Shown: positions 2 to 30,135 of the stretch, piece by piece | Layout of the letters: each line of letters starts with the position of its first letter | Position numbering within the stretch: the first letter of the stretch is position 1 | Assembly: GCF_007845675.1 (NCBI RefSeq) | Contig: NZ_VOBR01000002.1 | Span: 62,001-126,000 of the forward strand | Source: Lentzea tibetensis | GTDB lineage: Bacteria; Actinomycetota; Actinomycetes; Mycobacteriales; Pseudonocardiaceae | Direction of reading: 5' to 3' | Length of the DNA stretch: 64,000 bases | Notes under the pieces: model-generated | Database searches by the model: none | What the model saw: only the letters and a program-made list of their open reading frames with translations | Told to the model about the DNA's origin: nothing | Made by a program: the position numbers and the translations under genes

Positions 2-3000
2 CTCACGGTCGTGGTGAGCCCCGACACCGAACTGTCCATCCGGCTCGACTACGACCCGACGTTGTTCCAAGCCACCACGATCGAGCGGATGGCGGCCAAC
101 CTCGAAGCTCTGCTGTCGAGCATCTCCAGGGACTTCGGCCGGACCCTGCGCGAGTTGCACGCGGTGTCCCCGGCCGAGCGCATCCACGTCTTGCTGAAGT
201 GGAACGAGAACGTCCGCGGGGTCGAGCACGCGACAGTTCCCGAGAAGTTCGCCGCTCAGGTGTCGCGTGCGCCGGAAGCGGTGGCGCTCGTGACGGACGG
301 CTCGTCCTTGACGTACGCGGAGTTGGACGCGTGGTCGAACCGGTTGGCACATCGCCTTGACCGGCTGGGAGTTGACCGGGAACAGCGCGTCGGTCTGCTG
401 ATGGCCCGATCTGCCGACTTCGTCGTCGCCGAGCTGGCGGTGCTCAAGGCCGGTGGGGCGTACGTACCGGTGGATCTGCGCGCTCCGGTGGATCGGATGC
501 GGGCGATCCTGACGGAGGCCGGTGCATCGGTGCTGATCACCGATCAGACCTGGCACGAGACAGCTTCATCGGTGCACAACGGATCTGTTGTGCTGGCGAC
601 CGACGTCGACGCGGAGTCGAGTGACTCGCCTGAGGTGCGGATCGATCCGGACGGTCTTGCGTACGTGATGTACACGTCGGGCTCTTCGGGAGTGCCGAAG
701 GGTGTGGCGGTGTGCCATCGCGATGTCGTCGCACTGGCCGCGGACAGGCGGTTCGCAGGTGGCGCCCACGACCGCGTGCTGCTGCATTCCGCGTCGGCAT
801 TCGACGCGTCGACGTACGAGGTGTGGGTTCCGCTGCTGACCGGAGGCCGGGTCGTGGTGGCGTCGGCGGGTGACGTGGATCCCGATGTGTTGCGTGTGCT
901 GGTCTCCCACCACGGTGTGACGGCGTTGTGGCTGACGGCGGGGTTGTTCACCGTGCTGGCACAGGATGATCCGTCATGTCTGGCGGGGGTGTCCGAGGTG
1001 TGGACCGGTGGGGATGTCGTGCCCGCCGGCGCGGTGCGCCGGGTGCTGGAGGCATGTCCGGGGTTGGCTGTCGTCGACGGCTACGGTCCGACGGAGACGA
1101 CGACGTTCGCGACCGCTTACCGGTCGCCGAGCCTGGTGCCGGACATCGTGCCCATCGGAAGTCCTATGGACGGCAAACAAGTCTACGTTCTGGACGGCGG
1201 CTCCGGGCCGGTTCCCATCGGTGCCCCAGGGGAGTTGTTCATCGCGGGAGCCGGAGTCGCTCGGGGATACCTCGGCCGTCCCGGTTTGACCGCGGAGTCC
1301 TTCATCGCTGATCCGTTCGGCACTCCCGGCGGCCGGATGTACCGGACGGGGGATGTCGCACGCTGGACGGGCGACGGCGTGGTGGAGTTCGTCGGCCGCG
1401 CCGATGATCAGGTCAAGGTGCGCGGTTTCCGGATCGAGCTGGGTGAGATCGAGGCGGCGCTGATCGGTCATGACGGTGTCGGTGAAGCCGTGGTCGTCGC
1501 TCGCCAGGACCGCAGCGGTGTCAAACGACTCGTGGCATATGTCGTGCCGGACAGCGGAGGCGGTGTCGACGTCGAAGAGCTGCGGCGGCACGCGGCTGTG
1601 CTGCTGCCCGACTACATGGTCCCCTCCGCGGTGCTGGTGCTGGATGAACTACCGCTGACCCGCAACGGAAAGCTCGACCGGGACGCACTGGCCGCCAAGG
1701 ACTTCCACAGCTCACTCGCCGACCACGTGGCACCGCGCACCGCCGCGGAGACCGAACTGGTGCGGATCTGGGCCGAGGTCCTGGGCGTGCAGCAGGTCGG
1801 TGTCGAGGACGACTTCTTCGAGCTGGGCGGCGATTCGATCCTGAGCATCCAGGTCGTGTCCAGAGCTCGGAAGTCCGGATTCGGGATGACGCCGAGAGAT
1901 CTGTTCCGCTATCCCACTGTCGCAGGGCTCGCGGCCAGTGTCAGTGAGGTCGTCGCCGAGCGGGTCGACCAGGGTGCGGTGACCGGCGATGTGCCGCTGA
2001 CCCCGATTCAGCACTGGTACTTCCAGACCAACCCGGATCACGCCGAGCACTTCGACCAGTCGGTGCTGATCGAACTGGGTGGCGGAGCGGACGAGGAGGC
2101 TCTCCGCGGTGCGTTGGCGGCGGTGGTCAGCCACCACGACGCGCTGCGGATGTGCTTCGACGTGGTCGACGGCCGCTGGACACAACACAACGCTCCGGTC
2201 GAACCGGTTGATCTGTTGCAGGTCTGCGACTTGCCCGATGCAGAGGGTGAATCGGCGATGCGGGACATCTCCGCGAATGTGCACGCAGGCTTCGACCTCG
2301 CCGGCGGGCCGTTGCTGAAGGCGGTGTTGTTCCGGTTCCCCGGTGACCGGCGGCCGGTGTTGTTGCTGGCCGTGCATCACCTGGTGGTGGACGGTGTGTC
2401 GTGGCGGATCTTGCTCGAGGACGTCAACGCCACCTATCAGCAGTTGGTCGCCGGTGAGCCGGTCAACATCGAGCAGAAGACGACCGCGTTCCGCGACTGG
2501 GCGTTGCGGCTCACCGAGTTCGCGCTCGGCGGCGGGTTCGATGACGAACTGACGCACTGGGCCGAGGTGCGAGGCGATCCCGGTCTCCCGGTGGACCGCG
2601 GTGGGGACAACACCGCCGCTTCGGTCCGGTCGGTGTCGGTGGGTCTGGGCGTCGCGGAGACCGAGTCGTTGTTGCGAGATGTTCCCGGGGTGTACCGGAC
2701 ACAGGTCAACGACGTGCTGCTGGCGGCGTTGGGCCGGGTGCTGGGCCGGTGGACCGGTCGCGACCGGGTCGTGGTGGATCTTGAAGGGCACGGTCGTGAG
2801 GAGGTCCTCGCCGGCGTGGACGTGTCTCGCACGGTGGGGTGGTTCACGAGCATGTTCCCGGTGGTCCTGGATGGCGGCGCGGGTGAATGGGGCTCGACGC
2901 TGAAGTCGGTGAAGGAAGGGCTGCGTGCGGTGCCACGTCGCGGCTCGGGCTACGGAGCCCTGCGCTACCTCGCGGGCCGTGAGGTGACGTCCACGCCGCC

Positions 3001-3330
3001 GGTCAGCTTCAACTACCTGGGCCAGTTCGACTGGACGAACCTCGGTGAAGGCCTGTTCCACGAGGTGCTCGGTGGCCTTCAGTCCGACATCAGCGCCGAC
3101 GCCGCTCGCGGACACCTGCTCGACGTCGTGGGAAGTGTCGAGGACAAGCGACTGGAGTTCACCTGGTTGTACTCGAGCGACGTGCACGAGGAGAGCACGA
3201 TCCGGGTCCTGGCGGAGAAGCTGGTGGCGGCACTGCGCGAGATCATCGCGCACTGCGCCGAACCGGGCGCGGGTGGTCGTACTCCGTCCGATTTCCCGCT
3301 GGCCGGACTCGACCAGGCAGGGGTGGATCG
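2..3330 (+). other. NRPS module 1: (C tail)-A-PCP-E, Val-like, D-configured
   Basis: The residual C-domain end reads like the tails of the DCL-type C domains in this window (form VVVSPxxxLSIxxDYDPTLF) and unlike the LCL tails (form DYSTDLFD), so the missing upstream module probably ends in an E domain. Residues aligned by eye to the GrsA pocket positions give the code DAYWWGGTFK, which agrees at 8 of 10 positions with the gramicidin S Val code DAFWIGGTFK. The PCP and E domain have intact motifs ([32 protein letters not shown]), so the residue should be epimerised. Val is an inference; Ile or a related branched residue is possible. Confidence 0.8.
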
Positions 3331-6300
3331 GCTCGTGGGAGACGGACGTTCGGTCGAGGACGTCTACCCCATGACACCGATGCAGGCCGGCATGGTGTTC
3401 CACGGGGTGTCGCAGGAAGGGCAGGGCCTCTACTTCGAGCAGGCGACGTTCGTGCTCGACGGCGTGCCCGATCCGGACGTGCTGGCCCGTGCTTTCCAGC
3501 ACGTCGTCGACAGCACACCGGTTCTGCGCAGCGGCATGGTCTGGGAGGGTGTCGACGAGCCGCTGCAGCTGGTCCACGCCGAGGCTGAGGTCCCGGTGAC
3601 CTTCCTCGACTGGGACTCCTCGACCGAGCAGGACCGTGAGCGCAGGCTGGCAGAGCTTCTGGCGGCCGACCGGTCCGAAGGGCTGGATCTGCGAGCCGTT
3701 CCGTTGATGCGGCTCGTTCTGGCGAGGCTGTCGGCCACCGAGGTCCAAGTCGTGTGGACCTTCCACCACGTCCTGCTGGACGGTTGGAGCGTCTTCCGCG
3801 TGCTGTCGGACGTGTTCGACGCGCACGCCGCTCTGGCCGGTGGACGGCCACCGACGCCCTCGAGCCGCCGTCCGTTCCGGGACTATCTCCGGTGGCTGGT
3901 GGAACAGGACCATGCTGCCGCGGAAACCCACTGGCGTCAGCTGCTCGCGAGCTACGAGGCGTCGGCGACGCTGCCGTACGACCGGACGCCGGTTCAGGCG
4001 TACGCCACCCGCTCGTCGGAGTGGCTCCCGTTCGAGTTGGGCGCCGGCCAGACGAGTCGCCTGCGCGACATGGCCCAGCGCAACGGATTGACCGTGAACA
4101 CGGTGGTGCAAGGTGCCTGGGCTCTGCTGCTGTCCAGGTACAGCGGGCATCGCGATGTCTGCTTCGGCGCCACGGTGTCCGGCCGTCCCGCCGATCTGCC
4201 CGGCGTGGATGACATCACCGGCATATTCATCAACACACTGCCCGTCCGGGTAGCCGTCGATGATGCGTCCGGCCTGGTCGACTGGCTGCGGTCGCTGCAG
4301 GCTTCGCAGGCGGAGTCCCGGCGCTTCGACTTCGTGTCGCTGGGCAAGGTGCAGGGGTGGAGCGGGCTGCCGGGTGGGACGAACCTGTTCGACAGCATTC
4401 TGGTGTTCGAGAACTATCCGATCAACGACGAAGCAGCCGCTGTGCGCGGGTTGCGGCTGCGCGCGTTGTCGGCGGTGGAGACGACGAACTACCCGTTGAG
4501 CGTGGTGGTGTCTCCTGGTGAGCGGTTGTCGGTCGAGTTCGGCTACGACCCCCACCTGTTCGACGCCACGAGCATCGAGCGGATCGCCGGGCACTTGACC
4601 CGTGTGCTCGGACTGGTCGCCGACGATCCCACCGTTGTCCTGGGGCAGATCGACGTTCTGGCCGAGCGCGAGCGTGATCAGATCCTGGTGGAGTGGAACG
4701 ACACCGCGCGGGACGTGCCGGGGCTGACGTTGGCGGAGCTGTTCGAGTGCCAGGTGGCGCGGACGCCCGAGGCGACAGCCGTGGTGTTCGAGGGCGGGTC
4801 GTTGAGTTACGCCGAGTTGGATGCGCGGGCGGATCGGCTGGCGCGTGCGTTGATCGATCGCGGTGTCGGGCCTGAGGGGATCGTGGCACTGGTTTTGCCG
4901 CGGTCAGCGGACATCGTGGTGGCGCAGCTGGCTGTGGCGAAGGCAGGCGGTGCGTATCTGCCGGTTGATCCTGCCTATCCGCCGGAGCGGATCGCGTTCA
5001 TGTTGGCGGACGCACGTCCGGTGTTGGTGGTGACCACCGCTGATCTCGCCGCGATGCTGCCTGGCGACGTCCAGGTGACGGTGCTCGACCAGTCCGTTGT
5101 GGATGGACCGGTCGAGGTGGATCGGCTGCCGCCCGTGTCGTTGGCCAGTTCCGCGTACGTGATCTACACGTCCGGGTCGACGGGGACGCCGAAGGGCGTC
5201 GTGGTGTCCCATGCCGGGCTTGCGAGTTTCTCGGCGGCGGAGGTTGAGCACTACCAGGTGGGCGCTGGTGATCGAGTGCTGCAGTTCTCGTCGCCGAGCT
5301 TCGACGCGTCGGTGCTGGAGCTGTGCATGTCCTTGCCGGTCGGTGCGGCGTTGGTGGTGCCACCGCCAGGTCCGTTGCTGGGTGAGGCATTGGCGGACTT
5401 CGTCGTGTCGCAGGGCATCACACATGCGCTGATTCCGCCGGTGGCGTTGTCGACTGTGCCGGACGGCTCGGAGTTGCCAGGGCTGCGGATGCTCACAGTG
5501 GGTGGAGACGCGTGTCCGGCCGAGTTGGTGACGCGGTGGGCGGCTGGCCGGCGAATGATCAACTCGTACGGCCCGACGGAGTCCACGGTGGTGTCGACGT
5601 GGAGTGGCCCGTTGTCGCCGGGCGGTGTGCCCGCGATCGGTGGGCCGATCTGGAACACCAGGGTCTACGTCCTGGACGGTGCGGTGCGTCCGGTTCCAGT
5701 GGGCGTGGTGGGTGAGCTGTACGTGTCCGGCGCGGGGCTGGCACGGGGATATCTGAACCGCGCGGGCTTGACGGCGGAACGTTTTGTGGCGTGCCCGTTC
5801 GGGCCTGCCGGGTCCCGGATGTACCGGACGGGGGACCTCGCGCGGTGGAACTCGTCGGGCGAGTTGACGTTCGCCGGGCGAGTGGATCATCAGGTGAAGA
5901 TTCGGGGGTTCCGGATCGAGCCCGGCGAGATCGAGGCGGTCCTGCGCCGGCACGCCGACGTCGACGATGTCGTCGTGGTCGCGGGTGAAGAGACGCCAGG
6001 AACCAAACGGCTGGTTGCCTATGTGGCGACATCGAACGCGAACGAGAACTTCGTCGGGACGCTCCGGGCCGTGGTGGCCGAGTCCCTGCCGGAGTACATG
6101 GTCCCGTCGGCGTTCGTGGTGCTGGACAGGTTGCCGTTGAGCCCCAACGGAAAGCTGGACCGGCGGGCGTTGCCTGAACCTTCTGGTGCGGTGCCGGGGG
6201 CGGGACATGTCGAGCCGCGAACCGACACCGAACGGATACTGGCCGGAATCTGGGCGGACGCTCTCGGTGTGCAACGGGTCGGGATCCATGACGACTTCTT

Positions 6301-6469
6301 CGACCTCGGTGGCGAATCGCTGAGCAGCCTCGGCATCGCGGCCAAGGCCAAGGTGGCGTTCGACATCTCGCTGACACCACGCGACGTTCTGGTCGCGCGA
6401 ACGGTCTCCGCATTGGCTGACGTCGTCGAGGAACACGTCCTGCGTGAACTGGAAAGGCTCGTCGGATAG
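2..6469 (+). CDS. NRPS subunit 1 (5' truncated): [C]-A-PCP-E-C-A-PCP
   Basis: Multimodular non-ribosomal peptide synthetase. The reading frame is open to the left edge (first full codon at base 2), so the real start is outside the window; the GTG at 11 is internal, because the residues before it continue a condensation-domain tail. Domains in order: end of C, adenylation (A, about 200-1700), carrier PCP (phosphopantetheine Ser codon 1835), epimerization (E, 1980-3300), C (3355-4670), A (4690-6180), PCP (Ser codon 6317). Catalytic motifs are intact: HHLVVDG in [10 protein letters not shown] in C, LGGDSI and LGGESL in the PCPs. The protein stops soon after the last PCP, so it must pass its chain to another subunit; the next gene starts 28 bases later with an LCL-type C domain, which fits an L-residue donor. 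Cytosolic; needs phosphopantetheinylation and probably the MbtH protein encoded downstream. Confidence 0.97.
3350..6466 (+). other. NRPS module 2: DCL-type C-A-PCP, Tyr-like, L-configured
   Basis: The C domain begins with the [14 protein letters not shown] signature and has HHVLLDGWS, as in domains accepting a D-configured donor; this matches the E domain just upstream. The pocket code read from the A domain is DALLTGSVVK, 8 of 10 positions identical to DALVTGAVVK, a code recorded for Tyr in fengycin-type synthetases, so an aromatic residue is likely. There is no E domain, so the residue stays L. The PCP has LGGESL rather than the LGGDSI seen in PCPs that precede E domains. Confidence 0.7.
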
Positions 6470-6497
6470 TCCGGGCACGGAACAGTGGGGAACGGCG

Positions 6498-9400
6498 ATG
6501 ACCGTATCGAAGCAGAATCGCATTGACGCGTTGCCCGCCGAGGTACGGGAACTGTTGAAGCGCCGGCTGGCGGGAGACGCCGAGCGCACGGACGTCATCC
6601 CTCGAGCCGAGCGTGACGGCTCGCTCCCGCTGTCATTCGCCCAGCAGCGCCTCTGGTTCCTCAACGAGTTCCAGCCAGGGGACTCCGAGTACAACAGTGC
6701 GGTGGCCCTCCGGCTGGCCGGTGAGCTGGACGTCGCCGCACTGGTGGCCGCGCTGAACGAGCTGGTGGTGCGGCACGAATCCATGCGCACCACGATCGAT
6801 GACGTCGACGGCAGTGCCGTGCAGATCGTTCATCCAGCGGCCGAGCTCCCGTTGCCGATCATCGATCTGGGACGGGACGAGCTGGACCGGGTGCTGTTCG
6901 AGGAGTACTCCGAGGCCTTCGACCTGCGGCAGGGACCGCTGTGGCGAGCCCGGCTCCTTCGCTTCGACGCGAAGGAACACGTGCTGCTGCTCACGGCGCA
7001 CCACATCGTCACCGACGGTGCGTCGATGGGCATCGTCGTCGACGAGTTGAGCAAGCTGTACGGGGACACCGAGCTGCCGGCGCTTTCGCTGCATCACGTC
7101 GACTTCGCGGTGTGGCAGCGCGCCAGGCTGGCCGGTGCCGTGATGGACCAGCACGTCGACTACTGGACCGGGCAACTGGCCGACATCGTCCCGCTGGCGT
7201 TGCCGACCGACCGGCCGAGGCCGGCCGTGCGCACTTCCGCGGGTGCGGTGCACGAGTTCGAGGTCCGTGCGGAGATCGCCAGTGGTTTGGCCGTGCTGGC
7301 CCGCGCGCACGGCACGACCTTGTTCACCGTCCTGATCGCGGCCTGCCAGGTCCTGTTCGCCAAGTACACCGGTCAGCAGGACGTCGCACTCGGCACGGTG
7401 GTCTCCGGCAGGGGCCGGCCGGAGGTGGAGCGGATGGTCGGGTTCTTCGTGAACACCGTCGTCCTGCGCTCCACAGTGGACGGTTCGACCCGGTTCACCG
7501 ACCTCCTGGATGCGGTGAAGGGCACTGTGCTGGACGCCTTCGCGCACGACGAGGCCCCGTTCGAGAAGCTGGTGGAGGCACTGCGGATCGAGCGCGATCC
7601 CAGTCACAACCCTCTGTTCGACGTCATGGTTCTGCTGCACGGGGCCCAGGGCGAGTCCCCTCGGTTCGCCGGTCTCGACGTCAGCCCGGTCGCCCTGACC
7701 AAGCGCACGGCCAACTTCGACATCACGGTGGAGTTCCAGGAGTCGGCCGGCGTGCTGTGCGGCTCGATCGACTACAGCACGGATCTGTTCGACGCCACCA
7801 CGATCGATCGGCTGGCCGGGCACCTGGTGCGGCTGGTCGAGGCCATCGCCTGCGACCCGGAGCAGCCGGTGTCGGGGCTGCCGTTGATGTCCGGTGCCGA
7901 GCGGGACCGGGTGCTGGTGGAGTGGAACAACACCGATCGCGAGTACCCGGACGGGACAGTTGCCGGTTTGTTCGCGGACCGGGCTCGGCAGGCGCCCGAC
8001 ACCACTGCCCTGATCGCCGACGGGGTGTCGTTGACCTATGCGGAGTTGAACGCGCGAGCCAATCGGCTGGCGCACCACCTGATTGGGCTCGGTGTCCGGC
8101 CAGAGCACCCGGTTGGCCTGCTGATGGACCGCTCGGCCGACCTCGTCGTGGCCGTGCTGGCGATCGTCAAGGCTGGCGGAGCGTACGTACCGCTGGACGT
8201 ACGAGCACCGGTCGAACGGATGCGGTCGCTCCTGCTGGAGACCGGCGCGTCGGTCCTGCTCACCGACTTCGCCTGGGAGACCACGGCCGAGGAGATCCAC
8301 TGCGGGCGAGTGGTTCCGGTGGACAGCGCCGACGGGCCGGATACCGATCCCGGCATCGAGATGCACCCCGACAACCTGGTCTACGTCATGTACACCTCGG
8401 GCTCGACGGGCACGCCGAAGGGCGTGGCGGTCCGTCACCGCGACGTGGTCGCGCTGGCTGCCGATCGCCGGTTCGACGGCGGCGGGCACGACCGCGTGCT
8501 GCTGCATTCGCCATCCGCGTTCGACGCCTCGAGCTACGAGCTGTGGGTGCCGTTGCTCAACGGTGGCAGCGTCGTCGTCGCCCCGCCGGGCGATGTGGAC
8601 GCGGACGTGCTGCGACTGATGGTCACCGAGCACGGGGTGACCGGCTTGTTCTTGACGTCGGGGTTGTTCCAGGCGGTGGCACAGGACGCACCGGACTGCC
8701 TCGCGGGTGCCCGCGAGGTCTGGACCGGCGGCGACGTGGTGTCCGCGTCCGCGGCGCGCAGGATGTTGGCCGCTTGTCCTGGTATCTCGGTCTCGGACGT
8801 CTACGGGCCGACCGAAACCACGACGTTCGCGACCTCGCACGAGTTGTCCGACACCGAGCAGGTGCCGGACGCGGTGCCGATCGGGCGTCCGTTGGACAAC
8901 ATGCGGGTCTACGTCCTCGACGACGCGCTGTCACCGGTACCGGTCGGCGTTCCCGGCGAGTTGTTCGTCGCAGGTGCCGGATTGGTACGTGGCTATCTGA
9001 ACCGGCCGGGGTTGACCGCGGACCGGTTCGCGGCCGATCCCTTCGGGGAGCCGGGTACGCGGATGTACCGGACCGGGGACGTGGTGCGGTGGACGGCTGG
9101 CGGCCTGCTGGAGTACCAGGGCCGGGCCGATGATCAGGTGAAGATCCGCGGGTTCCGGATCGAACCGGGCGAGATCGAGAACGCGCTGACGCGGCACCCT
9201 GACGTAGCCGAGGCGGTGGTGGTTGCGAGGGAGGACAGTGGGCGCAAGCGCCTGGTGGCCTACGTGACCTCCGCGGGGACGGCAACGGGAGACCTGCGGC
9301 CCTGGCTGAAGCGGACCTTGCCCGACTACATGGTGCCGTCGGCGTTCGTGGTGCTCGGCGAGCTGCCGCTGAATCCCAACGGCAAGGTGGATCGCAAGGC

Positions 9401-15400: not shown

Positions 15401-18400
15401 GATCGACCGGATGATCGGGCACCTCGGCGTTCTGCTCGATGCCGTCGTGGCTGACCCTGATCGGCCCGTGGCGCAGCTCGACCTGCTGACCGGCACCGAG
15501 CAGGACCAACTCCTGGTCTCCTGGAACGACACTGACGTCGATGTGCCCCCGGCGACCTGGCCGGAGTTGTTCGAGCAACAGGCGGCGCGGACCCCGGACG
15601 CGACCGCGTTGGTGTTCCAGGACGAGGAACTGACCTTCGCCGAGCTGAACGCCCGCGCGAACCGGTTGGCCCGCTACCTCGTCGACAGCGGCGCGGCTGC
15701 CGAGCGGTTCGTGGCCGTGTCCCTGCCTCGGTCCGCAGAGGTGGTCGTGGCGATCCTCGCCGTGCTCAAGTCGGGAGCGGTCTACCTGCCCATCGATCCT
15801 GAACTGCCACCCGACCGGATCGACTTCGTGCTGCGCGACGCACAGCCGGTCGTGGTCCTCGACTCGATCCCGGCGCTCGACGGCTCCGATGCGAACCCGA
15901 CCATCCCGGCCGGCGGTGCCGCGTACTGCATCTACACCTCGGGTTCGACCGGTGTGCCGAAAGGCGTGGTCGTCGACCACCACGCTCTGGCCGATCTGAG
16001 CCACGACCACCGGGCCGAGTTCGGTGCCGCCCAGGGGAACGACCGGATGCGGGTGGCGTTGACGTCCGCGTTCTCGTTCGACGCGTCGTGGGACGGCCTG
16101 CTCATGATGGCCGACGGTCACGAGCTGCACCTGATCGACGACGTCATGCGGCTCGACCCCGAGGCGTTGGTGGACTACGTCGTCAGCCGTCGGATCGACC
16201 TGGTCGACTCGACCCCTTCCCATGTCCAGCAACTGATGCTGGCCGGTCTGTTCGCCGGACGTCATCAGCCGTCGGTCCTCATGCTCGGTGGAGACGCCGT
16301 CGACCAAGCGTTGTGGCGTGAGCTGTCAGCGGTCGAGGAGACGGTCTCCTACAACCACTACGGGCCGACCGAGACCACGGTCGACGTCGTGTGGACGCGC
16401 CTCGACGCCCACGATCGCCCGGTGATCGGCCGGCCGGGCCACAACGTGCGTGCGTACGTGCTCGACGAACTGCTGCGCCCGGTGCCGATCGGCGTCCCCG
16501 GTCAGCTCCACCTGGCGGGCGGCCGCCTTGCCCGTGGATACCTGAACCGGCCGGGACTGACCGCGGAGAGGTTCACGGCCAACCCGTTCGGACCGCCTGG
16601 CAGCCGGCTCTACGGCACCGGCGACCAGGTGCGCTGGACCCCCGGCGGACTCCTGGAGTACCTGGGACGCGTCGACGAGCAGGTCAAGATCCGGGGCTTC
16701 CGCATCGAGCCCGGTGAGGTCGAGGCGGCACTGCGCGGCAACGGCGAGGTCGCCGAGGCCGTCGTCGTCGCCAGGGAGGACGAGGGGCACCGGAGACTGG
16801 TGGCCTACCTCGTGCCTGCTGGCGAGCGCGCTCCTGAGGCATTGGAACTGCGTGCCCGGCTCAAGCAGACCCTGCCGGACTACATGGTGCCGTCCGCGTT
16901 CGTCGTGCTCGACCGGCTGCCCCTGACCACGAGCGGCAAGGTCGATCGCAGTGCCCTGCCCGCACCGGACCGCCTGCGGGAAGGTCCGAGCGGGACCTCG
17001 CCGCGCACGCCGATCGAGCGTCAACTGGCTGAGGTGTGGGCCGCCGTGCTCGGCGTCGAGCGGCTGGGCGTGGAGGACAACTTCTTCGCGCTCGGCGGTG
17101 ACTCGATCCTGAGCATCCAGGTCGTCTCCCGCGCCCGGCAGGCGGGCTTGCGGCTGACCTCGAAGGACATCTTCCGCCACCAGACGATCGCCGAACTCGC
17201 GGTCGTCGTGGGGGAGGGAGCAGCGGCCGAGCCCGCCGACCTCGACCTGATCATCGGCCCGGCGCCGCTCACCCCGATCCAGCGCTGGCTGCTGGAAACC
17301 GATGATCCACACCACTTCACGATGTCGACGCTCGCGGAGCTGCCCCCCGACCTCGACGCGGAGGCGCTGTCGTCGGCGTTGGACGCGGTCGTGGCCCACC
17401 ACGACGCGCTGCGCGCCCGTTTCACCCAGGTCGACGGCCAGTGGCAGCAGGAGTTCGCGCCGACCGATCACATCCCGGTGGTGAGGTGCTTCGATCTGTC
17501 CGAAGAGGACGTTCAGGACACCGCCATCGGAGCTCAGTCGGGCCTGGACCTGACGAACGGCCCGCTGATCGCGGCGGTGTTGTTCACCTTCAGCGACCGG
17601 GCACCTCAGCTCTTCCTGGCCATCCACCACCTCGTCGTCGACGGCGTGTCGTGGCGCATCCTGCTCGGCGACCTCGAGACCGCCTACCACCAGGTGCGGG
17701 CGGGTCAGCCGATCGACCTCGGTGCCAAGACGAGTTCCTATCACCTGTGGGCGCGGCGGCTGACCGAGCACGTCGTGGCCGGCGGCCTCGACGAAGACCT
17801 CGCGCATTGGGAGAAGGTCGTCGCATCACCGGAGCTGCCGGTGGATCGCAGAGGTGCCAACACGGCCGGATCGAGTCGCACGATCTCGGTGCGGCTGGAC
17901 CGGGACAACACCGATGCCTTGCTGCGCAAGGTTCCCGACGTGTACCGCACGCAGGTCAACGACGTGCTGATCGCGGCGCTCGGCCGGGTGTTGGCGCAGT
18001 GGACCGGTCGTGAGCGGGTCCTGGTGGCCATGGAGGGGCACGGCCGCGAGGAGATCCTCGACCGGATCGACCTGTCGCGCACCGTCGGCTGGTTCACCGC
18101 GGAGTTCCCCGTCGCGCTCGAGGTGCCCGGCACCGGCTGGGGCGACGCGCTCAAGTCCACCAAGGAACAGCTGCGCGCGATCCCCCACAAAGGACTCAGC
18201 TACGGCGCGCTGCGCTATCTGAACGGCGTGCTGAAGACCGGCCAAGTGGCGGAGATCTGCTTCAACTACCACGGCCAGTGGAACGCCACCGCCGACTCAG
18301 AGGGGTTCTACCGCTCCTGGGGGACCGGCATCGGCCAGGACGTCGCCACTGACCGGCTGCGCACCTACCTGCTGGAGGTGACCGGCGTCGTCGAGGACGG

Positions 18401-21400
18401 CGAGCTGGAGCTGGGCTGGACGTACTCCACGGCCGTGCACGACGAGGAAACCGTGCAATGGCTCGCAGAACAGCTCATCTCGGCCCTGCGGGAGATCGTC
18501 GACCACTGCGGTTCACCGGGAGCGGGCGGCCGGACCCCGTCGGACTTCCCCTTCGCCCGGCTGAACCAGGCACAGGTGGACGACCTGGTCGGCGGACGTT
18601 CGGTCGAGGACATCCACCCGTTGACCCCGTTGCAGGCCGGAATGCTGTTCCACGGTCTGGTGGACACCGAATCGGCTGCCTACTTCGAGCAGATCCGCAT
18701 CCGGCTGTCCGGTGTGCCCGACCCGAGTGGGCTGGGTGAGGCGTGGCAACGGGTGGCGGACCGGACCCCGGCGCTGCGCAGCAGACTCGCGTGGGCGGGC
18801 GTCGACGAGCCGGTGCAGGTCGTCGAACGTGACGTGGTGCTGCCCGTCGTCCAGCACGACTGGCGGGACCGGTCCGAGGCCGATCGGGAAACCGCGCTGC
18901 GAGACCTGCTGGAACGCGATCAGGCCGACAGGTTCGACCTCGCCACGGCGCCGCTGTCCAGGGTGGCGATCATCGCGCTGTCCGATGACGAGGTGCTGAT
19001 GGTGTGGACCTCGCACCACGTCGTGCTCGACGGGTGGAGCGCTGCCCAGGTGTTCGCCGAGGTCTGCGAACAGTACGCGGCCGCGGCTGGAGGAAGCGAG
19101 CCTCAGCTCGTGGCTCGCCGCCCGTTCCGCGACTACCTGAGCTGGCTGTCCGACCAGGATCCGGGACAGGCCGAGGAGTACTGGCGGCGGACGCTGTCCG
19201 GCTTCGAGTCGCCGACCCCGTTGCCCTGCGACCGTCGTCCGCTGCAGGCGCACCGAACGCAGTCAGCCGCGTCGGTCCGCGTCGAACTCCAGCCGGACGA
19301 GACAACCAGGTTGCACGAAGTCGCCAAGCAGAACGCGCTCACCATCAACACGATCATCCAGGGAGCGTGGTCGCTGCTGCTGTCCCGCTACAGCGGCGAG
19401 CGGGACGTGCTGTTCGGCACCACGGTGTCCGGCCGCCCGGCGGAGCTTCCCGGTGTCGAATCGATGCTCGGGATGTTCATCAACACCGTGCCGACCCGTG
19501 TTCAGGTCCGCAGTGGATGGACGCGGGCCAAGTGGTTGAGGGAGTTGCAGGCCGCGCAGAGCGAGTCGCGGAGCTTCGACTTCGTGTCCCTCGGACAGCT
19601 GCGGCCCTGGAGCGACGTTCCTGCTGGGCAGAACCTGTTCGACAGCATGGTGGTGTTCGAGAACTACCCGATCAGCGAACCCGCGACCGCTGGGGCGCCA
19701 CAGGTGCTCGAGGTGAACTCCTCGGACGCGACGAGCTTCCCGCTGTGTCTGCGCGCCTCACTCGGTGAAAGTCTCGCCCTGGACCTCGCCTATGATCCGA
19801 AGCTGTTCGACGCCGGCACGATCCGTGCGATGGTCCAGCGCCTGCGCTTCTTGCTCGAGGGCATCGCGGGCGATCCGGACGGTCTGGTGGCCAGGCTGCC
19901 GTGGATGTCCGACGACGAGCGTGGTCACGTTGTCGCAGAATCTCTGGGGACCTGGCGTGACGTGCCCGCGGCGACGGTCCCCGAACTGTTCGCCGCCCAG
20001 GTGGCCCGCACGCCGGACGCACCGGCGGTCGTGCACGGGGCCGTCACCCTGTCGTACGCGGAACTGGACGCCCGCTCGAATCATCTGGCGAATCGGCTGG
20101 TGGAGCTCGGTGTCCGGCTGGAAGACCGGGTCGGACTGCTGCTGGAGCCCTCGCTCGGCCACTGCGTCGCCGAGCTGGCTGTGCTGAAGGCTGGCGGGGC
20201 CTATGTTCCGCTGGACGTTCGTGCGCCACGGAAGCGAATGCGCTCGATGCTGGCGGAAGCCGCCGCGTCGGTGCTGATCACCGATCTCACCTGGCAGGCG
20301 GTGGCCGACGACGTTCACGGCGGACGAACCGTGCTGGTCGATGCCGGCGAGTCGGCAACGGGTCCGGCACCGCGCGCGAACCAAGACAACTTGGCCTACG
20401 TCATGTACACGTCGGGGTCGACCGGAACGCCCAAGGGTGTCGCGGTCCGCCACCGGGACGTGGTGGGCCTGGCCTCCGACGGCCTCTTCCGCAGTGGCGC
20501 CCACCAGCGGGTGCTGGCCCATTCACCGCTGGCGTTCGACGCTTCGACCTGCGAACTGTGGGTGCCGTTGCTCAGCGGCGGCCAGGTCGTGCTGGCGAGC
20601 ACCCCGGACCTGAGCGTGGAGTCCTTGGGCCGAGCCATCGCCGACCACGAGGTGACCGCATTGTGGCTGACCGCGGGCCTGTTCCGGTTGGTGGCCCAGG
20701 ACGCACCTGGTTGTCTGGCCGGTGTCCGAGAAGTGTGGACCGGCGGCGACGTGGTTCCTGCGGCGGCGGTGCGCCGGGTCCTGGCGGCGTGCCCCGGTGT
20801 GGTGGTCGTCGACGGCTACGGTCCGACCGAGACCACTACTTTCGCGACCGCCTACCGGATGCACGGGCCGGTGGCCGACCCGGTGCCGATCGGGCGACCG
20901 TTGGACAACATGCGCGGCTACGTGCTCGATCACGAGCTGCGCCCGGTGCCTCGTGGTGTGCCAGGCGAGCTGTGCGTTGCCGGTTCGGGGCTGTCCCGCG
21001 GCTACCTGAACCGGCCCGGGCTGACAGCGGAGCGGTTCGTGGCGGACCCGTTCGGTGTCCCTGGGGAGCGCATGTACCGAACCGGAGACGTCGTCCAGCG
21101 GATCGCCAGCGGCGAACTCGCCTTCCTCGGCCGATCCGACGAGCAGGTGAAGCTGCGCGGATTCCGGGTCGAACTGGGCGAGGTGGAGGCTGTGCTGGCC
21201 GCTCACCCCACCGTCGGCCAGGCGGTGGCCGTCCTCAACGGTGACAGGTTGGTCGCCTACGTCGTACCCGCGGCCGTCGAACCTTCGGACGTGCGCGAGC
21301 ACGCCGTGGCGATGCTGCCGGAGTACATGGTTCCCGCCGTGATCATGGTTCTTGACGAGCTGCCGTTGAGCCGCAACGGAAAGCTGGACCGCCGGGCGCT

Positions 21401-24400
21401 CCCGGCACCGGGCGCGGCGGCCGGCGAACGCCATGTGGCACCGCGTACCGGCCTCGAACGAGCCGTCGCGAACATCTGGGCACGCCTGCTCGGTGTGGAG
21501 CGCGTCGGCGTCGACGACAACTTCTTCGAGCTCGGCGGCGACTCGATCATGAGCATCCGGCTGGTGTCCGGGTTGCTGGCCGAGTGCGGGCTGAGCGTGT
21601 CCCCGCGAGCGGTGTTCAGCAATCCGACGGTCGCTGGTCTGGCTGCCGCGATCGGCGCGGAGAACGCCACGCCTGCCGACCGGATTCCGGTGCTGCCGCG
21701 GCACGGCACCATCGCGCAGTCGTTCGCCCAGCAACGACTCTGGTTCCTCGACGACTTCGAGCCCGGTGGCGCCGAGTACGTCACGTTCACCGCTGTGCGT
21801 CTGGTGGGCGCGCTGGACGTCGGCGCGTTGTCCGAAGCGTTCACGGCACTGGTCGCCAGGCACGAGTCTCTCCGCACGACGTTCGGGTCGATGGCGGGCA
21901 GTGGCGTCCAGGTGGTGCATTCGCCGTTCGAGGTTCAGATTCCGGTGGCCGACCTGCCTCAGGACGGGGATCTGATGGCGTTGCTCGCCGAGGAAGGCGG
22001 TCGCCCGTTCGACCTTCGCCGCGGCCCGCTGATGCGGCCGGGGTTGATCCGGCTGGCTGATGACGAGCACGTGCTGACCTTGGCCCTGCACCACATCATC
22101 ACCGACGGCTGGTCCAACGGAGTGATCGCCGGTGAGTTGAGCGTGCTGTACAGCTCTGCCCTGCGCGGCGAGCTGCCGGATCTGCCACCGCTTCCCGTGC
22201 AGTACGCGGACTTCGCCACCTGGCAGCGAGGACTGCTGTCGGAGAGCGTGCTGGACGAGCAGGTGTCCTACTGGCGCGGGCAACTCGCAGACGTCCCGCC
22301 GCTGGAGCTGCCGACGGACCACCCCAGGCCCGCGGTGCGCTCGACCAGTGGTGCGATGAGAGAGACCGTCATTCCCGCGGCGGTCACCGCGCGGCTCGTG
22401 GAGCTGAGCCGCGAGCGGGAGACCACCTTGTTCACGACGCTGGTCGCGGCCTGTCAGGTCCTCTTCGGACGATTGGCCGGGCAGGACGACGTGACTGTGG
22501 GAACGGTGGCCTCCGGCCGTGAGCGTGCCGAGCTGACCGGACTGGTCGGGTTCTTCGTGAACACGCTGGTGCTGCGATCTCACGTGCGTGGGGACCTCAC
22601 GTTCACCGAGTTCCTCGGAGGCGTGCACGAGACCGTCCGCGACGCGTTCGACCGCCAGGACCTCCCGTTCGAGCGGGTCGTGGACAGCGTCCAGCCCGAC
22701 CGCGACACCAGCCGCACTCCGTTGTTCCAGGTCATGGTGGTGCTGCAGAACGCTCCCCAGGAGGCGCCGCTGCTGCCAGGCCTGGTGGTCGAGGACGTGC
22801 CGCTGCCGGTGACGACGGCCAACTTCGACGTCACGGCCGAGTTCCAGGAGGTCGACGGCCACCTGCGGGTCGCGTTGAACTACAGCACGGACTTGTTCGA
22901 GCCGGCCACGATCGAGCGGCTCGCGGACCAGTTGCAGGTGCTGCTCGGCGCCATCGCGGACGATCCGGCACGACCTGTCTCCCGGCTGGCCCTGCTTTCC
23001 GAGACCGAACGACGGCGCCTGCTGGTCGAGTGGAACGACACGGATCGCGACGTGTCCGCCGGCCTGCTGCCGGAGTTGATCGAGTCGCAGGCGCGGCGTG
23101 ATCCGCACGCTCCAGCGGTGTTCTCGCGCCTCGCCACCGGCGAGGACGAGGTGGTGCGCTACCTCGAACTCAACGCGCGAGCCAACCGGCTGGCCAGGGT
23201 GCTGGTCGACAGAGGAGTCGGCCCGGAGCAGATCGTCGCGCTCATCTTGCCGCGTTCGGTGGACATCATCGTCGCTCAGCTCGCGGTGCTGAAGGCCGGG
23301 GCGGCGTTCCTTCCGGTGGACGCGGCCTATCCGGCGGAACGAATCGGCTTCATGCTCGCCGATGCCCGTCCCGCACTGATCCTGACTCGCAGCGACATGG
23401 TCACGAACCTGACCAGCGCCGGGGGAATCACCGTGCTGGTGCTCGACGAGCCCGATGTGATGTCCGAAGTGGACGGTAGGCGGGCCGACAATCTGACTGA
23501 CGCGGACCGGACCTCAACCCTGTTGCCGGGGCACCCGGCCTACGTGATCTACACGTCCGGATCGACCGGGCGGCCCAAGGGGGTCGTCGTGCCGCACACC
23601 GGCCTGGCCAGTCTCTCGGCGGCCGCAACAGATCATTTCGTCATCACACCGGCCGATCGCGTCCTGGAGTACTCCTCCCCGAGCTTCGACGTCTCGGTGC
23701 TGGAGCTGTGCATGTCGTTGCCAGCCGGAGCAGCGCTGGTCGTACCACCTCCTGGCACGTTGCTGGGCGAACAGCTCGCCGATGTGCTGGCTGATCACGC
23801 GGTGACCATCGCGGAGATCCCTCCCGCCGCACTGGCCACCGTGCCGAAGACTCCGCTACCGGACCTCCGCACGCTCATCGTGGGTGGTGACGTGTGCACC
23901 GCGGACCTGGCGGCCCGCTGGGCGCCTGGCCTGCGGATGATCAACGGCTACGGGCCGACGGAGTTCACGGTGTCGACGACCTGGAGCGGACCACTGACGG
24001 GTGTGGAAACCCCGCCTATCGGCAGGCCGATCTGGAACACCCGCGTGTACGTGGTGGACAGTGCCCTGCAGCCCGTGCCGGTCGGTGTTCCCGGCGAGCT
24101 GTACATCGCGGGCACGGGTCTGGCCCGCGGCTATCTCAACCGCCCTGGGCTGACCGCGGACAGGTTCGTGGCGAACCCCTTCGGGCCGGCCGGGTCGCGG
24201 ATCTACCGCACCGGAGACGTCGTCAGATGGACCGCGGCCGGCGAGCTGGACTTCATCGGACGGATGGACGACCAGGTGCAGATCCGCGGATTCCGGATCG
24301 AGCTGGGCGAAGTCGAGTCGGTGCTGTTGCGGCACCCGGATGTCGGCGAGGCCGTCGTGGTCGTGCAGGACGAACGCTTGGTCGCCCACGTGGTGCCGGC

Positions 24401-26171
24401 GCCGGGTTCGGCCGCACCCGGTACGGCGGACCTGCGCGAGTTCCTCGGCCGGACGTTGCCTGACCACATGGTGCCCGTCGCTTTCACGGCGTTGGACGCG
24501 TTGCCGCTGAACCCGAGCGGAAAAGTCGACCGCCGCCTGCTGCCCTCGGTGACCGCGGCTCCCGATCCGGGAACCTCCTACGTGGAGCCGAGCACGCCGG
24601 CCGAGAGTGCGCTGGCTCAGATCTGGGCCGACGTACTCGGGCTGGACCGAGTCGGAGTGCGAGACAACTTCTTCGATCTGGGCGGCGATTCGATCCTCAG
24701 CATGCAGGTGGTGTCCAGGGCCAGGAAGGCCGGCCTGGGGCTGACGTCCAAGGATCTCTTCCTGCACCAGAGCATCGACGTGCTCGCCGTCGAACTGGGC
24801 GCGTCGGCTGGCACTTCGGTGCCGCGAGGGCCGGCGGAACCGGTCGTCGGATCGGTACCGCTGACACCGATCCAGCGGTGGTTCTTCGAAAGCCACGCGG
24901 TCAATCCGCACCACTTCAACCAGTCGATGCTGCTGGAGCTGTCCGCCGACCTGGACGAGGCGGCGTTGCGGCAAGCCCTGGACGCGTTGTGGCTCCACCA
25001 CGACGCCCTGCGGATGCGTTTCGAGTGCGTCGATGGTCGGTGGCAGCAGCACAACGCCGCCCCCGAGCCGGTCCCGCTGTTGCAACGACGCGATCTGTCC
25101 GATGTGGATGTTGACGGGCAGATGGCCGCGATGGAGAAGGTGGCCGACGAGGTCCACGCGAGCTTCGACCTGCTGACCGGCCCACTGCTGAAGGCCGTCC
25201 TGTTCACCGGCCGCGGGCAGCCGTACCTCTTCCTGGCGTCGCACCACATCGTGGTCGACGGAGTCTCATGGCGGATTCTGCTGGACGATCTCGAGGTGGC
25301 CTACCAGCAGTCGGCCCGAGGTGAGCCGGTCGACCTCGGCGGCAAGACGACCTCGTTCCTGGACTGGGCCAACCGCCTCAGCGAACACGTGGCGGCGGGC
25401 GGCCTCGATCACGAACTCGGACACTGGGCCGGCGCCTCGGACGTGGGGGACCTGCCGGTGGACCGTGCGCCCGAGAAGTCCGAGACTCCGGCCGAGTTGG
25501 TGTCGATCGCTCTGAACGCCGAGGACACGGACGCGTTGCTGCACTCAGCACCCACCACGTACCGCACGCGGATCAACGAGGTTCTGCTCAGCGCCCTCGC
25601 CTGGGCGTTGTCGCGGTGGACCCGGCGGCGCGTCGTGTCGATCGACCTCGAGGGGCACGGTCGCGAGGACGTCCTCGATGCCGTCGACCTGACTCGAACC
25701 GTCGGCTGGTTCACCACGATCTTCCCCATCGCCTTGACCGTGCCCGATGAGGACGAACCGCGGTGGCGGGAGCTGATCAAGTCGGTCCGGCGGCAACTGC
25801 GAGCCGTTCCAGGAAACGGGTTCGGCTACTCGGCCCTGCGCCACCTCGGTTCACCCGAGGCACGCGAGCGGCTGTCCACCGACGGGCAGGGGCCGCAGAT
25901 CGCCTTCAACTACCTCGGGCAGTGGGACAGCACCGCCAGGGGCACCGACGGCGGTCTTTACGTGGCGTCGCACTCCTCGCTGGGGCAGGACCACGATCTG
26001 GCTGAGAGCAGTTCCCACGTGCTCGAGGTCGTGGGTGCGGTCCAGGGCGGCGAGTTGGTGTTCTCCTGGTTCTACCAACCTGACCTGCACGACCTGTCGA
26101 CTGTGCAGTCCGTGGCCGGTGACTTCGCGGTCGCTCTGCGGAGCATCGCGCGCGACTGCGGGAAAGGCTGA
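6498..26171 (+). CDS. NRPS subunit 2, five modules, no thioesterase
   Basis: Very large synthetase of 6557 residues. An ATG at 6444 is in frame, but the ATG at 6498 is preferred: it follows a GGGG ribosome-binding stretch at 6487-6490, and the protein then starts with a short basic-acidic helix ([17 protein letters not shown]) as is usual before a C domain. Order: C-A-PCP-E / C-A-PCP / C-A-PCP-E / C-A-PCP / C-A-PCP-E. Phosphopantetheine serines fall near residues 1019, 2512, 3536, 5016 and 6065. C domains alternate LCL, DCL, LCL, DCL, LCL, exactly as the E domains predict. The protein ends inside the last E domain with no thioesterase, reductase or terminal C domain, so another enzyme must release or extend the peptide. 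Part of one operon with the genes on either side (6-base gap to the transporter). Confidence 0.97.
6620..11085 (+). other. NRPS module 3: LCL C-A-PCP-E, Ile/Val-like, D-configured
   Basis: C domain starts [13 protein letters not shown] and has HHIVTDGAS, the LCL form, matching the unepimerised residue on the previous subunit. Pocket code DAYFWGVTFK agrees at 7 of 10 positions with the bacitracin Ile code DAFFYGITFK; a beta-branched aliphatic residue is the best guess. PCP serine at codon 9552 in LGGDSI; E domain has [13 protein letters not shown] and EGHGRE, so the residue is expected in D form. Confidence 0.7.
11090..14170 (+). other. NRPS module 4: DCL C-A-PCP, L-Thr
   Basis: C domain has the DCL hallmarks ([21 protein letters not shown]) after the E domain of module 3. 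The A domain pocket reads DFWNIGMVHK, identical to the classical threonine code, and the A5 motif is the typical YGITETTVH. This is the firmest substrate call in the cluster. No E domain, so L-Thr; its hydroxyl could serve as a macrolactone nucleophile, which is only a possibility. Confidence 0.9.
14195..18590 (+). other. NRPS module 5: LCL C-A-PCP-E, probably cationic residue, D-configured
   Basis: LCL C domain ([22 protein letters not shown]). Pocket code read as DADDMGHVDK. Three extra acidic residues (positions 239, 278 and 331 in GrsA numbering) suggest recognition of a basic side chain such as Arg, enduracididine, Orn or Lys; no exact code match is known to me. Motif A7 is YGTGDQVRW rather than YRTGDxVRW. 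PCP serine codon 17103; E domain intact ([13 protein letters not shown]), so a D residue. Confidence 0.6.
18595..21690 (+). other. NRPS module 6: DCL C-A-PCP, Val-like, L-configured
   Basis: DCL C domain ([21 protein letters not shown]) after the E domain of module 5. Pocket code DACWWGGTFK, one change from module 1 (DAYWWGGTFK), so a Val-like residue is expected. PCP serine codon 21543 in LGGDSIMSI; no E domain. Confidence 0.7.
21700..26168 (+). other. NRPS module 7: LCL C-A-PCP-E, unassigned substrate
   Basis: LCL C domain ([22 protein letters not shown]). Pocket code read as DVLEIGGVSK, which I cannot assign. The A domain departs from consensus at three places: A1 region reads VVRYLEL with a short insertion, A5 reads GPTEFTV where GPTETT or GPTEST is normal, and A8 reads QVQIRG where QVKIRG is usual. 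Overall it is closest to the A domain of module 2 (shared [16 protein letters not shown] and WSGPL segments). The PCP serine (codon 24690) and the terminal E domain are intact. Confidence 0.65.
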
Positions 26172-27432: not shown

Positions 27433-27639
27433 ATGGACGAGGACACCCAGTACCAGGTCCTGATCAACGACGAGGAGCAGTACTCGCTGTGGCCGGCCGA
27501 CCAGGACGTCCCCGCGGGCTGGCGCAGCACCGGCACCGAAGGGAGCAAGGAGGACTGCGTGTCGTACGTCGATGAGGTGTGGACCGACATGCGGCCGCGC
27601 AGCCTCCGCGAGCGCATGGCGGCCAACCAACAAGACTGA
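27433..27639 (+). CDS. MbtH-like NRPS chaperone
   Basis: Small protein of 68 residues with the family signature: NDEEQYSLWP near the start, DVPAGW in the middle, and YVDEVWTDMRPRSLR at the end. MbtH proteins bind A domains and are needed for solubility or adenylation activity of many actinobacterial NRPSs. It is the last gene of the tightly spaced NRPS operon, so its partners are presumably the seven A domains encoded upstream. Confidence 0.97.
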   Translation: MDEDTQYQVLINDEEQYSLWPADQDVPAGWRSTGTEGSKEDCVSYVDEVWTDMRPRSLRERMAANQQD

Positions 27640-27698
27640 TGCGGCCTGGGCACGGCGAGTCTGGACATGTGGACTCCCACGCCCACCGACCTGATCTT

Positions 27699-27724
27699 GT
27701 TTAGCGCAGGGCACGTCCGGGAAC
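27699..27724 (+). promoter_or_regulatory. Candidate sigma-B-like promoter for the desaturase gene
   Basis: GTTT (27699-27702), 16-base spacer, GGGAAC (27719-27724), about 65 bases before the desaturase start. The -35 fits the stress-sigma consensus; the -10 departs from GGGTAT. It lies in the 150-base gap that separates the NRPS operon from the desaturase. Confidence 0.35.
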
Positions 27725-27789
27725 CCGTACGGGGTGAATTGAGTGGTCGCCCCAGTCCCCGGCGCCGCGGGACTCGGGGAAGGACGCAC

Positions 27790-29746: not shown

Positions 29747-30135
29747 TCCGCGTCCTCCTTGAGGGTTTCGACCGTGCGCTCGGGTTTTGGTGAGACCTGG
29801 CGAAGCCGGGTGCGGCCGCTGGTGAACAAGGCGAAACCGGCAATGCCCCACACGGCCGCGACGATCAGTGCCGCCCAGCCCAGCGGCATCACGGCACCCA
29901 GTGCGAACACCGCGGCGAGGCTGAGCAACACCGCGGTCATGTACCCGGCGAAGCCCGCGCCGGCGAGCATCCCGGTGGCCTTGCCCGCTTTCACCGCCTC
30001 CTCGCGGATTTCCGCCTTGGCGAGCTCGAGCTCCTGCCGCATCAGCCGGGAGAGGTCCTCGGCGAGTTCTCCGACCAGCTGGCCGAGCGACTCGCGGTCG
30101 GCCGTGTCCGGCAACCCGATGTCAGGGCTGGACAT
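29722..30135 (-). CDS. Phage-holin-superfamily/DUF1469 (YqjE-like) membrane protein
   Basis: Protein of 137 residues: an amphipathic N-terminal helix (LGQLVGELAEDLSRLMRQEL) and two adjacent membrane segments in the middle, the layout of the actinobacterial phage-holin family III/DUF1469 proteins. The ATG at 30135 has GGAGGT seven bases upstream. It overlaps the gene before it by 14 bases and the gene after it by 25, so translation is coupled in a three-gene operon. Despite the family name there is no sign of a lysis cassette; a role in envelope stress is inferred from the neighbours. Confidence 0.85.
   Translation of the reverse strand: MSSPDIGLPDTADRESLGQLVGELAEDLSRLMRQELELAKAEIREEAVKAGKATGMLAGAGFAGYMTAVLLSLAAVFALGAVMPLGWAALIVAAVWGIAGFALFTSGRTRLRQVSPKPERTVETLKEDAEWARHPTK

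What the first reader, a model, noticed from the sequence alone, without database searches (positions are those of the whole stretch)
2..26171. Seven-module NRPS line with alternating D and L residues and a Thr, possibly a new peptide
Reading the A-domain pockets gives D-Val-like, L-Tyr-like, D-Ile/Val-like, L-Thr, D-cationic, L-Val-like, D-unassigned. Every C-domain subtype agrees with the presence or absence of an E domain upstream, so the order of the two genes is self-consistent. I do not recognise this sequence as a known peptide; the mix of hydrophobic D/L residues and one cationic D residue resembles membrane-active or lipid II-binding peptides.
Basis: partly seen in the sequence, partly recalled or inferred. 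Interest (0 to 1): 0.75.

Follow-up and report, generated by a model that had tools for sequence, protein, structure and literature searches.

The report
Ten-module cyclic decapeptide assembly line
The window holds the last seven of ten modules of an uncharacterised enzyme assembly line that very probably makes a small ring-shaped ten-residue peptide in a Lentzea bacterium; sister lines occur in related actinobacteria, so it is an interesting but known kind of system.

Summary
The NRPS genes are real, but the "seven-module line" is a window artefact: the first gene starts about 12.7 kb upstream of the window. The whole line has ten modules in two genes, and a stand-alone penicillin-binding-protein-type thioesterase (PBP-type TE, SurE/Ulm16 relative) lies immediately upstream. 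Stereochemistry by domain logic is L-D-D-D-L-D-L-D-L-D, so alternation holds only for modules 4-10. First residue L and last residue D is the published rule for PBP-type TEs, so the best reading is a head-to-tail cyclic decapeptide. The seven pocket readings are reproduced; module 8 "cationic" is plausible, not proven; module 10 is nearest an Orn code. TE, MFS exporter and MbtH beside the same kind of NRPS pair occur in 19 of 19 fetched Pseudonocardiaceae relatives; all ten A domains are seen in 18, the 19th being cut by its contig end. The two Lentzea lines differ by a swapped module-6 adenylation core. I found no characterised product in the searches run; MIBiG was not available. Observation partly confirmed; new member of a known kind. 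The lipid II idea has no evidence.

The parts
2..6469 (+). 3' part of NRPS gene A (full gene G000:C22:49291 or 49120 to 68469; modules 1-5). Upstream of the window lie modules 1-3, most of the module-4 C domain (it ends at window 172) and, at C22:47991-49205, the PBP-type TE
161..3271 (+). module 4: A (161-1711, code DAYWWGGTFK, Val), T (1718-1927), E (1955-3271): D-Val
   Evidence: Val meaning of the code from a PMC9113097 passage
3344..6412 (+). module 5: C (3344-4666), A (4655-6193, DALLTGSVVK, aromatic/Tyr-like by recalled codes, not firmly assigned), T (6200-6412), no E: L residue
6498..26171 (+). NRPS gene B, modules 6-10 (GTG start at 6444 also possible); ends in an E domain, no cis thioesterase
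6579..11015 (+). module 6: C (6579-7895), A (7884-9425, DAYFWGVTFK, Val/Ile), T (9435-9644), E (9675-11015): D-Val/Ile. The A core is swapped relative to the relatives; 18 of 18 non-Lentzea relatives read DTLDMGFVDK here (DTEDMGFVDK with another gap placement)
11088..14126 (+). module 7: C, A (12399-13904, DFWNIGMVHK, Thr), T: L-Thr
   Evidence: DFWNVGMVHK is listed as Thr in PMC9113097, the I variant is recalled
14169..18524 (+). module 8: C, A (15483-16976, DA(W/D)DMGHVDK, polar, probably basic, Gln or Glu not excluded), T, E: D residue
18594..21638 (+). module 9: C, A (19902-21422, DACWWGGTFK, Val-like), T: L-Val
21666..26168 (+). module 10: C, A (22992-24563, DVLEIGGVSK, nearest an Orn code), T, E (24819-26168): D residue, C-terminal of the peptide
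26178..27428 (+). MFS exporter; homolog in 19 of 19 fetched relatives
27433..27639 (+). MbtH-like protein; homolog in 19 of 19 fetched relatives; downstream end of the conserved core

Best explanation
This is the larger part of a five-gene biosynthetic cluster (PBP-type TE, two NRPS genes with ten modules, MFS exporter, MbtH) in a Lentzea species. Module 1 probably starts without a fatty acid, because its N-terminal C-like stretch is a remnant in which no HHxxxDG motif was found. The two proteins add ten residues with configuration L-D-D-D-L-D-L-D-L-D. The stand-alone PBP-type TE then takes the decapeptide from the last carrier domain and joins the L N-terminus to the D C-terminus, giving a head-to-tail cyclic decapeptide: cyclo[L-aromatic1, D-small2, D-Val/Ile3, D-Val4, L-aromatic5, D-Val/Ile6, L-Thr7, D-polar or basic8, L-Val9, D-Orn-like10]. 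The MFS protein probably exports it. Shown by sequence: modules, stereo-logic, TE family and catalytic residues, conserved core. Inferred: substrate identities at modules 1, 2, 5, 8 and 10, ring closure, export, and any antibiotic action (a membrane-active, gramicidin S- or tyrocidine-like role is a guess).
For: Ten A, ten T, nine C and six E domains, all C and E with the HHxxxDG motif, in two adjacent collinear genes; no cis TE seen, last domain E. PBP-type TE at C22:47991-49205: Pfam Beta-lactamase E 9.9e-49; best solved structures 6KSU, E 4.7e-71, named as SurE in PMC11735501, and 8FEK, Ulm16, E 2.1e-59. Aligned Ser, Lys, Tyr, Asn and His kept in 20 of 20 cluster TEs. PBP-type TEs join an N-terminal L to a C-terminal D residue (PMC11735501, section 7), and the line begins and ends that way. 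TE, MFS and MbtH homologs beside the NRPS pair in 19 of 19 relatives; ten A domains in 18 of 19. C-domain subtypes match E domains.
Against: No product has been seen. If module 10 really loads Orn, the PMC11735501 statement that SurE disfavours cationic C-terminal residues counts against it, although WolJ accepts D-Orn and D-Arg; the SurE Gly235 equivalent is kept here. The codes of modules 1, 2, 5, 8 and 10 have no exact match in the papers searched. The E domains of the relatives vary at the motif: module 4 has N or D for the first His in 12 of 18 non-Lentzea relatives, module 6 has Leu for the Trp after it in 18 of 18, modules 3 and 8 vary in the five genomes of one genus; so their D pattern is less sure than that of the window, whose six E domains are regular.
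Confidence: 0.85

Rival explanations
1. The line makes a linear decapeptide: the PBP-type TE acts mainly as a hydrolase, or the linear peptide is the end product, as with surugamide F beside cyclosurugamide F.
For: PMC11735501 names surugamide F as the linear analogue of a decapeptide handled by SurE.
Against: [quoted passage not shown] A first module without E and a last module with E are kept in the 18 relatives in which both ends were read; in the nineteenth, G165, the start lies beyond the contig end.
Confidence: 0.08
2. A lipopeptide antibiotic: the N-terminal C-like stretch of NRPS A is a starter C domain that acylates residue 1.
For: About 300 residues before the first A domain match the C-domain profile in part (best stretch residues 160-239 of the translated piece); a fatty-acid-desaturase-family gene lies at window 27667-28842.
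Against: No HHxxxDG found in the stretch. In 16 of 18 non-Lentzea relatives the first A domain starts within 96 residues of the start of its frame, leaving no room for it; G165 (contig end) and G253 (frame broken inside A1) could not be read there. The desaturase gene hit in 0 of 19 relatives' fetched DNA, L. terrae included. A head-to-tail cyclising TE needs a free N-terminus.
Confidence: 0.03
3. The product is a compound already known, whose cluster I could not look up (MIBiG not on hand), for example a described Amycolatopsis cyclopeptide.
For: The cluster type is widespread: TE match at E <= 1e-120 in 21 of 391 family genomes, own genome included. A compound may have been isolated without its genes being named.
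Against: No paper on it found in the open library by pocket codes or by genus, enzyme and decapeptide terms (most subscription papers are not held). In the part of the PBP-type TE section that I read, the surugamide F group are the only peptides called decapeptides.
Confidence: 0.2

Closest known systems
Surugamide system: SurE with the NRPS genes of surugamide A and (cyclo)surugamide F
   Same: Stand-alone PBP-type TE acting in trans on NRPSs; L start and D end; a decapeptide is among SurE's products (PMC11735501). The window genome's TE aligns with 6KSU over residues 9-399.
   Different: Here one TE lies with one ten-module line. The NRPS genes themselves were not compared with the surugamide genes.
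Ulm16 / ulleungmycin system
   Same: TE homology (8FEK, E 2.1e-59).
   Different: Decapeptide line here; ulleungmycin as a hexapeptide is recalled.
Gramicidin S and tyrocidine
   Same: Head-to-tail cyclic decapeptides (PMC11735501 passages); D residues and a basic residue in both (recalled).
   Different: Those use fused type-I TEs; such TEs join an N-terminal D to a C-terminal L (PMC11735501). Opposite chirality rule and an unrelated TE here.
   Same: Ten modules with E at the same six places in 18 of 19 (G165 cut by its contig end, the visible part agrees); TE, MFS, MbtH.
   Different: 18 of 18 non-Lentzea relatives: module 6 DTLDMGFVDK and module 10 DALL(V/I)GA(V/I)VK; gene order NRPS A, MbtH, TE, NRPS B, MFS instead of TE, NRPS A, NRPS B, MFS, MbtH.

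Membership tests
PBP-type-TE-dependent head-to-tail cyclic NRP systems | Stand-alone TE homologous to SurE/Ulm16 | tested here: met
PBP-type-TE-dependent head-to-tail cyclic NRP systems | Catalytic Ser, Lys, Asn, His of PBP-type TEs | tested here: met
   20 of 20 cluster TEs, window genome included
PBP-type-TE-dependent head-to-tail cyclic NRP systems | C-terminal lipocalin-like domain | tested here: inconclusive
PBP-type-TE-dependent head-to-tail cyclic NRP systems | NRPS without cis TE; first module without E (L N-terminus), last module with E (D C-terminus) | tested here: met
   rule from PMC11735501
PBP-type-TE-dependent head-to-tail cyclic NRP systems | Cyclic macrolactam product | not testable with these tools
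   needs chemistry
Lipopeptides with starter C domain | Functional starter C domain at the N-terminus | tested here: not met
   No HHxxxDG found in the N-terminal stretch; partial profile match only
Gramicidin S/tyrocidine-type lines | Fused type-I TE, N-terminal D and C-terminal L | tested here: not met
Lipid II-binding peptides | Binding to lipid II | not testable with these tools
   no sequence evidence for or against
Characterised cluster in MIBiG | Whole-cluster match | not tested
   MIBiG not available; literature searches only

The most novel reading that the evidence does not exclude
A family of PBP-TE-cyclised decapeptides, found here only in Pseudonocardiaceae, in which the Lentzea branch and the other genera differ by an exchanged module-6 adenylation core (basic-type code against Val/Ile) and by a changed module-10 pocket (aromatic-type against Orn-like), so that the charge moved around the ring. 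The TE C-terminal pocket changed with it: Pro-Cys at SurE positions 233-234 in the two Lentzea TEs, against Ala or Gly followed by Ala in the other 18. It would be a natural example of a synthetase rebuilt by subdomain swap with a co-adapted cyclase.
Probability: 0.2. Interest if true: 0.55.

Novelty: new member of a known kind. Interest (0 to 1): 0.38.

Why it matters
PBP-type TEs are sought as peptide-cyclising catalysts; PMC11735501 counts five characterised in vitro. This family offers about 20 natural pairs of TE and line for ten-residue rings. It also gives a natural experiment: a replaced A core in an otherwise matching module, which is what NRPS engineers try to do by hand. The product may be a membrane-active cyclic peptide, but that is untested.

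Tried and rejected
Rejected: seven-module reading (window edge); strict D/L alternation (modules 2-4 are all D); lipid start (remnant C domain, no acyl gene in the conserved core); fatty-acid-desaturase-family gene at 27667-28842 as tailoring enzyme (hit in 0 of 19 relatives, tested as the shorter gene call 27871-28842); alpha/beta hydrolase at 32340-33155 as the thioesterase (its shorter gene call g27, 32340-33101, hit in 0 of 19, and the PBP-type TE explains release).

Led nowhere: literature searches with pocket codes gave only PMC9113097 and PMC3992020 as useful; otherwise listed unrelated papers (20 listed of 22 and of 4,108). PDB searches with the A cores of modules 5, 8 and 10 returned 52, 43 and 51 sequences, mostly NRPS domains of various substrates, without a specific hint. 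I recall codes such as DAQDLGVVDK (Gln), DAKDLGVVDK (Glu), DMENLGLINK (Orn) and DALVTGAVVK (Tyr) and a daptomycin-type Orn code beginning DTWDMG; none of these came from a call. DALVTGAVVK was among the terms and DTWDMG, without a useful paper. An earlier count said '24/25 Lentzea genomes'; this is wrong, the count is 13 of 25.

Paper use: PMC11735501 passages and section 7 part 1 of 2; PMC9113097 one passage; PMC9120177 twelve of 37 places; PMC3992020 four passages; all others search listing only.
Full report
Where it is. The window is G000:C22:62001-126000 of a 9.36 Mb genome. Genome G021 of the same genus has the TE at the same place on a contig of the same length (317,126) as the named record of Lentzea terrae NEAU-LZS 42, so the host is a Lentzea species.

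What is there. The open frame at window base 2 continues upstream: NRPS A runs from C22:49291 (or 49120) to 68469 and NRPS B from 68498 (or 68444) to 88171. Motif and profile reading gives M1 A-T; M2 C-A-T-E; M3 C-A-T-E; M4 C-A-T-E; M5 C-A-T; M6 C-A-T-E; M7 C-A-T; M8 C-A-T-E; M9 C-A-T; M10 C-A-T-E. The nine C and six E domains keep HHxxxDG. The N-terminal part of NRPS A is a C-domain remnant in which none was found.

Stereochemistry. A tree of C and E domains from six clusters (window, L. terrae, A. vastitatis, G175, G252, G389) puts the 30 C domains that follow an E in one clade (1.0), the 24 that follow none in another (0.993), and the 36 E domains in a third (1.0). The chain is L-D-D-D-L-D-L-D-L-D.

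Substrates. Codes: M1 DALLAGSVVK, M2 DVFGVAIVYK, M3 DAYFWGVTYK, M4 DAYWWGGTFK, M5 DALLTGSVVK, M6 DAYFWGVTFK, M7 DFWNIGMVHK, M8 DAWDMGHVDK or DADDMGHVDK, M9 DACWWGGTFK, M10 DVLEIGGVSK. PMC9113097 lists DAYWWGGTFK and DAYFWGVTFK as Val and DFWNVGMVHK as Thr. PMC3992020 gives DVGEIGSIDK for Orn, which shares six of ten positions with M10. M1, M5 and M10 of six clusters form one A-domain clade with support 1.0; their aromatic reading rests on recalled Tyr codes. M8 falls in one clade with the relatives' M6 (1.0). A basic substrate is likely for it, Gln or Glu not excluded. M2 as a small residue is a guess.

Release. No cis TE was seen in either NRPS. The gene at C22:47991-49205 is a Beta-lactamase-family protein whose best solved relatives are SurE (6KSU) and Ulm16 (8FEK). 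The catalytic residues are kept in 20 of 20. PMC11735501 states that these enzymes join an N-terminal L to a C-terminal D residue, which is what this line offers.

Cluster limits. Of 22 genes tested by tblastn against the fetched DNA of 19 relatives (genes g8-g31 without the two NRPS genes), TE, MFS and MbtH hit in 19 of 19. The desaturase-family gene hit in 0 of 19, three small genes at 29129-30838 in 6 of 19, the Na/H exchanger in 1 of 19 and the STAS-domain gene in 1 of 19; the other 13 hit none. The fetched DNA reaches only about 1-11 kb before the first and 2-30 kb after the last gene of the core, so genes elsewhere are not excluded. The core is five genes, about C22:47991-89639.

Distribution. 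TE matches at E <= 1e-120 occur in 21 of 391 genomes of the family, the own genome included, in four genera. Among 397 genomes drawn from the order (E <= 1e-110) only the own genome and G165 matched; among 394 drawn from the class (E <= 1e-105) only the own genome (both sets include genomes already searched). Within Lentzea, 2 of 25 genomes carry it. Of the 20 other matching genomes I read 19; 18 show all ten A domains with E at the same six places, and G165 shows modules 4-10 and the end of module 3. For G168, whose second gene is split over overlapping frames, this holds after ordering the pieces by position.

Against a simple picture. Several relatives' E domains vary at the motif: N or D for the first His at module 4 in 12 of 18 non-Lentzea relatives, Leu for the following Trp at module 6 in 18 of 18, and variants at modules 3 and 8 in the five genomes of one genus. 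Their C domains after these modules still fall in the after-E clade in the four non-Lentzea clusters of the tree.

Evolution. C domains of modules 2 and 4-10 of the window are about as close or closer to the same module of the relatives than to any other C domain of their own line; module 3 C is closer to the window's own module-5 C (62%) than to the orthologs (50-53%). The clear exception among A domains is module 6: 47% to the A6 of each of four relatives, but 66% to the line's own A3 and to the A3 of G389. Around it, C6 is 61-64% to orthologs against at most 52% to own paralogs; T6 is 67-74% (own best 73%) and E6 53-56% (own best 55%), with the three nearest non-Lentzea domains being module-6 ones in each case. 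Sliding identity places the swapped core at about residues 541-840 of the ORF, and in the tree the two Lentzea A6 domains sit among Val/Ile-type domains (1.0). Other A domains moved too: the module-1 and module-5 A domains of Lentzea group together (1.0), and its module-10 A domain falls beside them in the tree rather than with the relatives' module 10, which points to exchange within the line. In 18 of 18 non-Lentzea relatives M6 reads DTLDMGFVDK and M10 DALL(V/I)GA(V/I)VK. The two Lentzea TEs have Pro-Cys at SurE 233-234, the other 18 Ala or Gly followed by Ala. Since both Lentzea lines presumably share one ancestor, this is one event, a correlation and not proof; which state is older was not tested. 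SurE disfavours charged C-terminal residues and Gly235 is kept, which speaks somewhat against Orn at position 10.

Known or new. No paper on this cluster was found in the searches named in Rival explanations; MIBiG could not be searched. The Lentzea genome survey PMC9120177 names no cluster that I could match to it in the twelve of 37 places seen. I file it as a new member of a known kind: PBP-type-TE cyclic nonribosomal peptides.

Noticed in passing
G000:C1:444331-445479 and G000:C13:179728-180861 (outside the window): Two further PBP-type TE homologs (47% and 50% identity to the cluster TE), each near giant NRPS genes (C-domain matches at C1:447390-482076 and C13:153714-177997); the genome has 86 Pfam condensation-family matches in all, E domains and fragments included.
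   Followed up: no
Lentzea genus: 13 of 25 Lentzea genomes carry another PBP-type TE homolog at about 47-50% identity (E <= 1e-90), so this release type seems common in the genus.
   Followed up: no
window 27667-28842: Fatty-acid-desaturase-family protein (PF00487) right after the cluster, without a hit in the fetched DNA of 19 relatives; weak NCBIfam matches, all far below cut-off, include a guanitoxin-pathway arginine hydroxylase family.
   Followed up: partly
window 29129-30838: A putative actinobacterial Holin-X protein (PF07332, 29722-30135) between two small genes with weak apolipoprotein-like matches; the trio also lies downstream of the decapeptide line in 6 of 19 relatives at 38-58% identity.
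   Followed up: no
N-terminus of NRPS A, G000:C22:49291-50085 (outside the window): Degenerate C domain, no HHxxxDG found, in both Lentzea lines; no room for it in the frame of 16 of 18 non-Lentzea relatives, two not readable there.
   Followed up: partly
E domains of modules 4 and 6 in the non-Lentzea relatives: Motif variants: N or D for the first His at module 4 in 12 of 18, Leu for Trp after the motif at module 6 in 18 of 18; whether these E domains are active is open.
   Followed up: no
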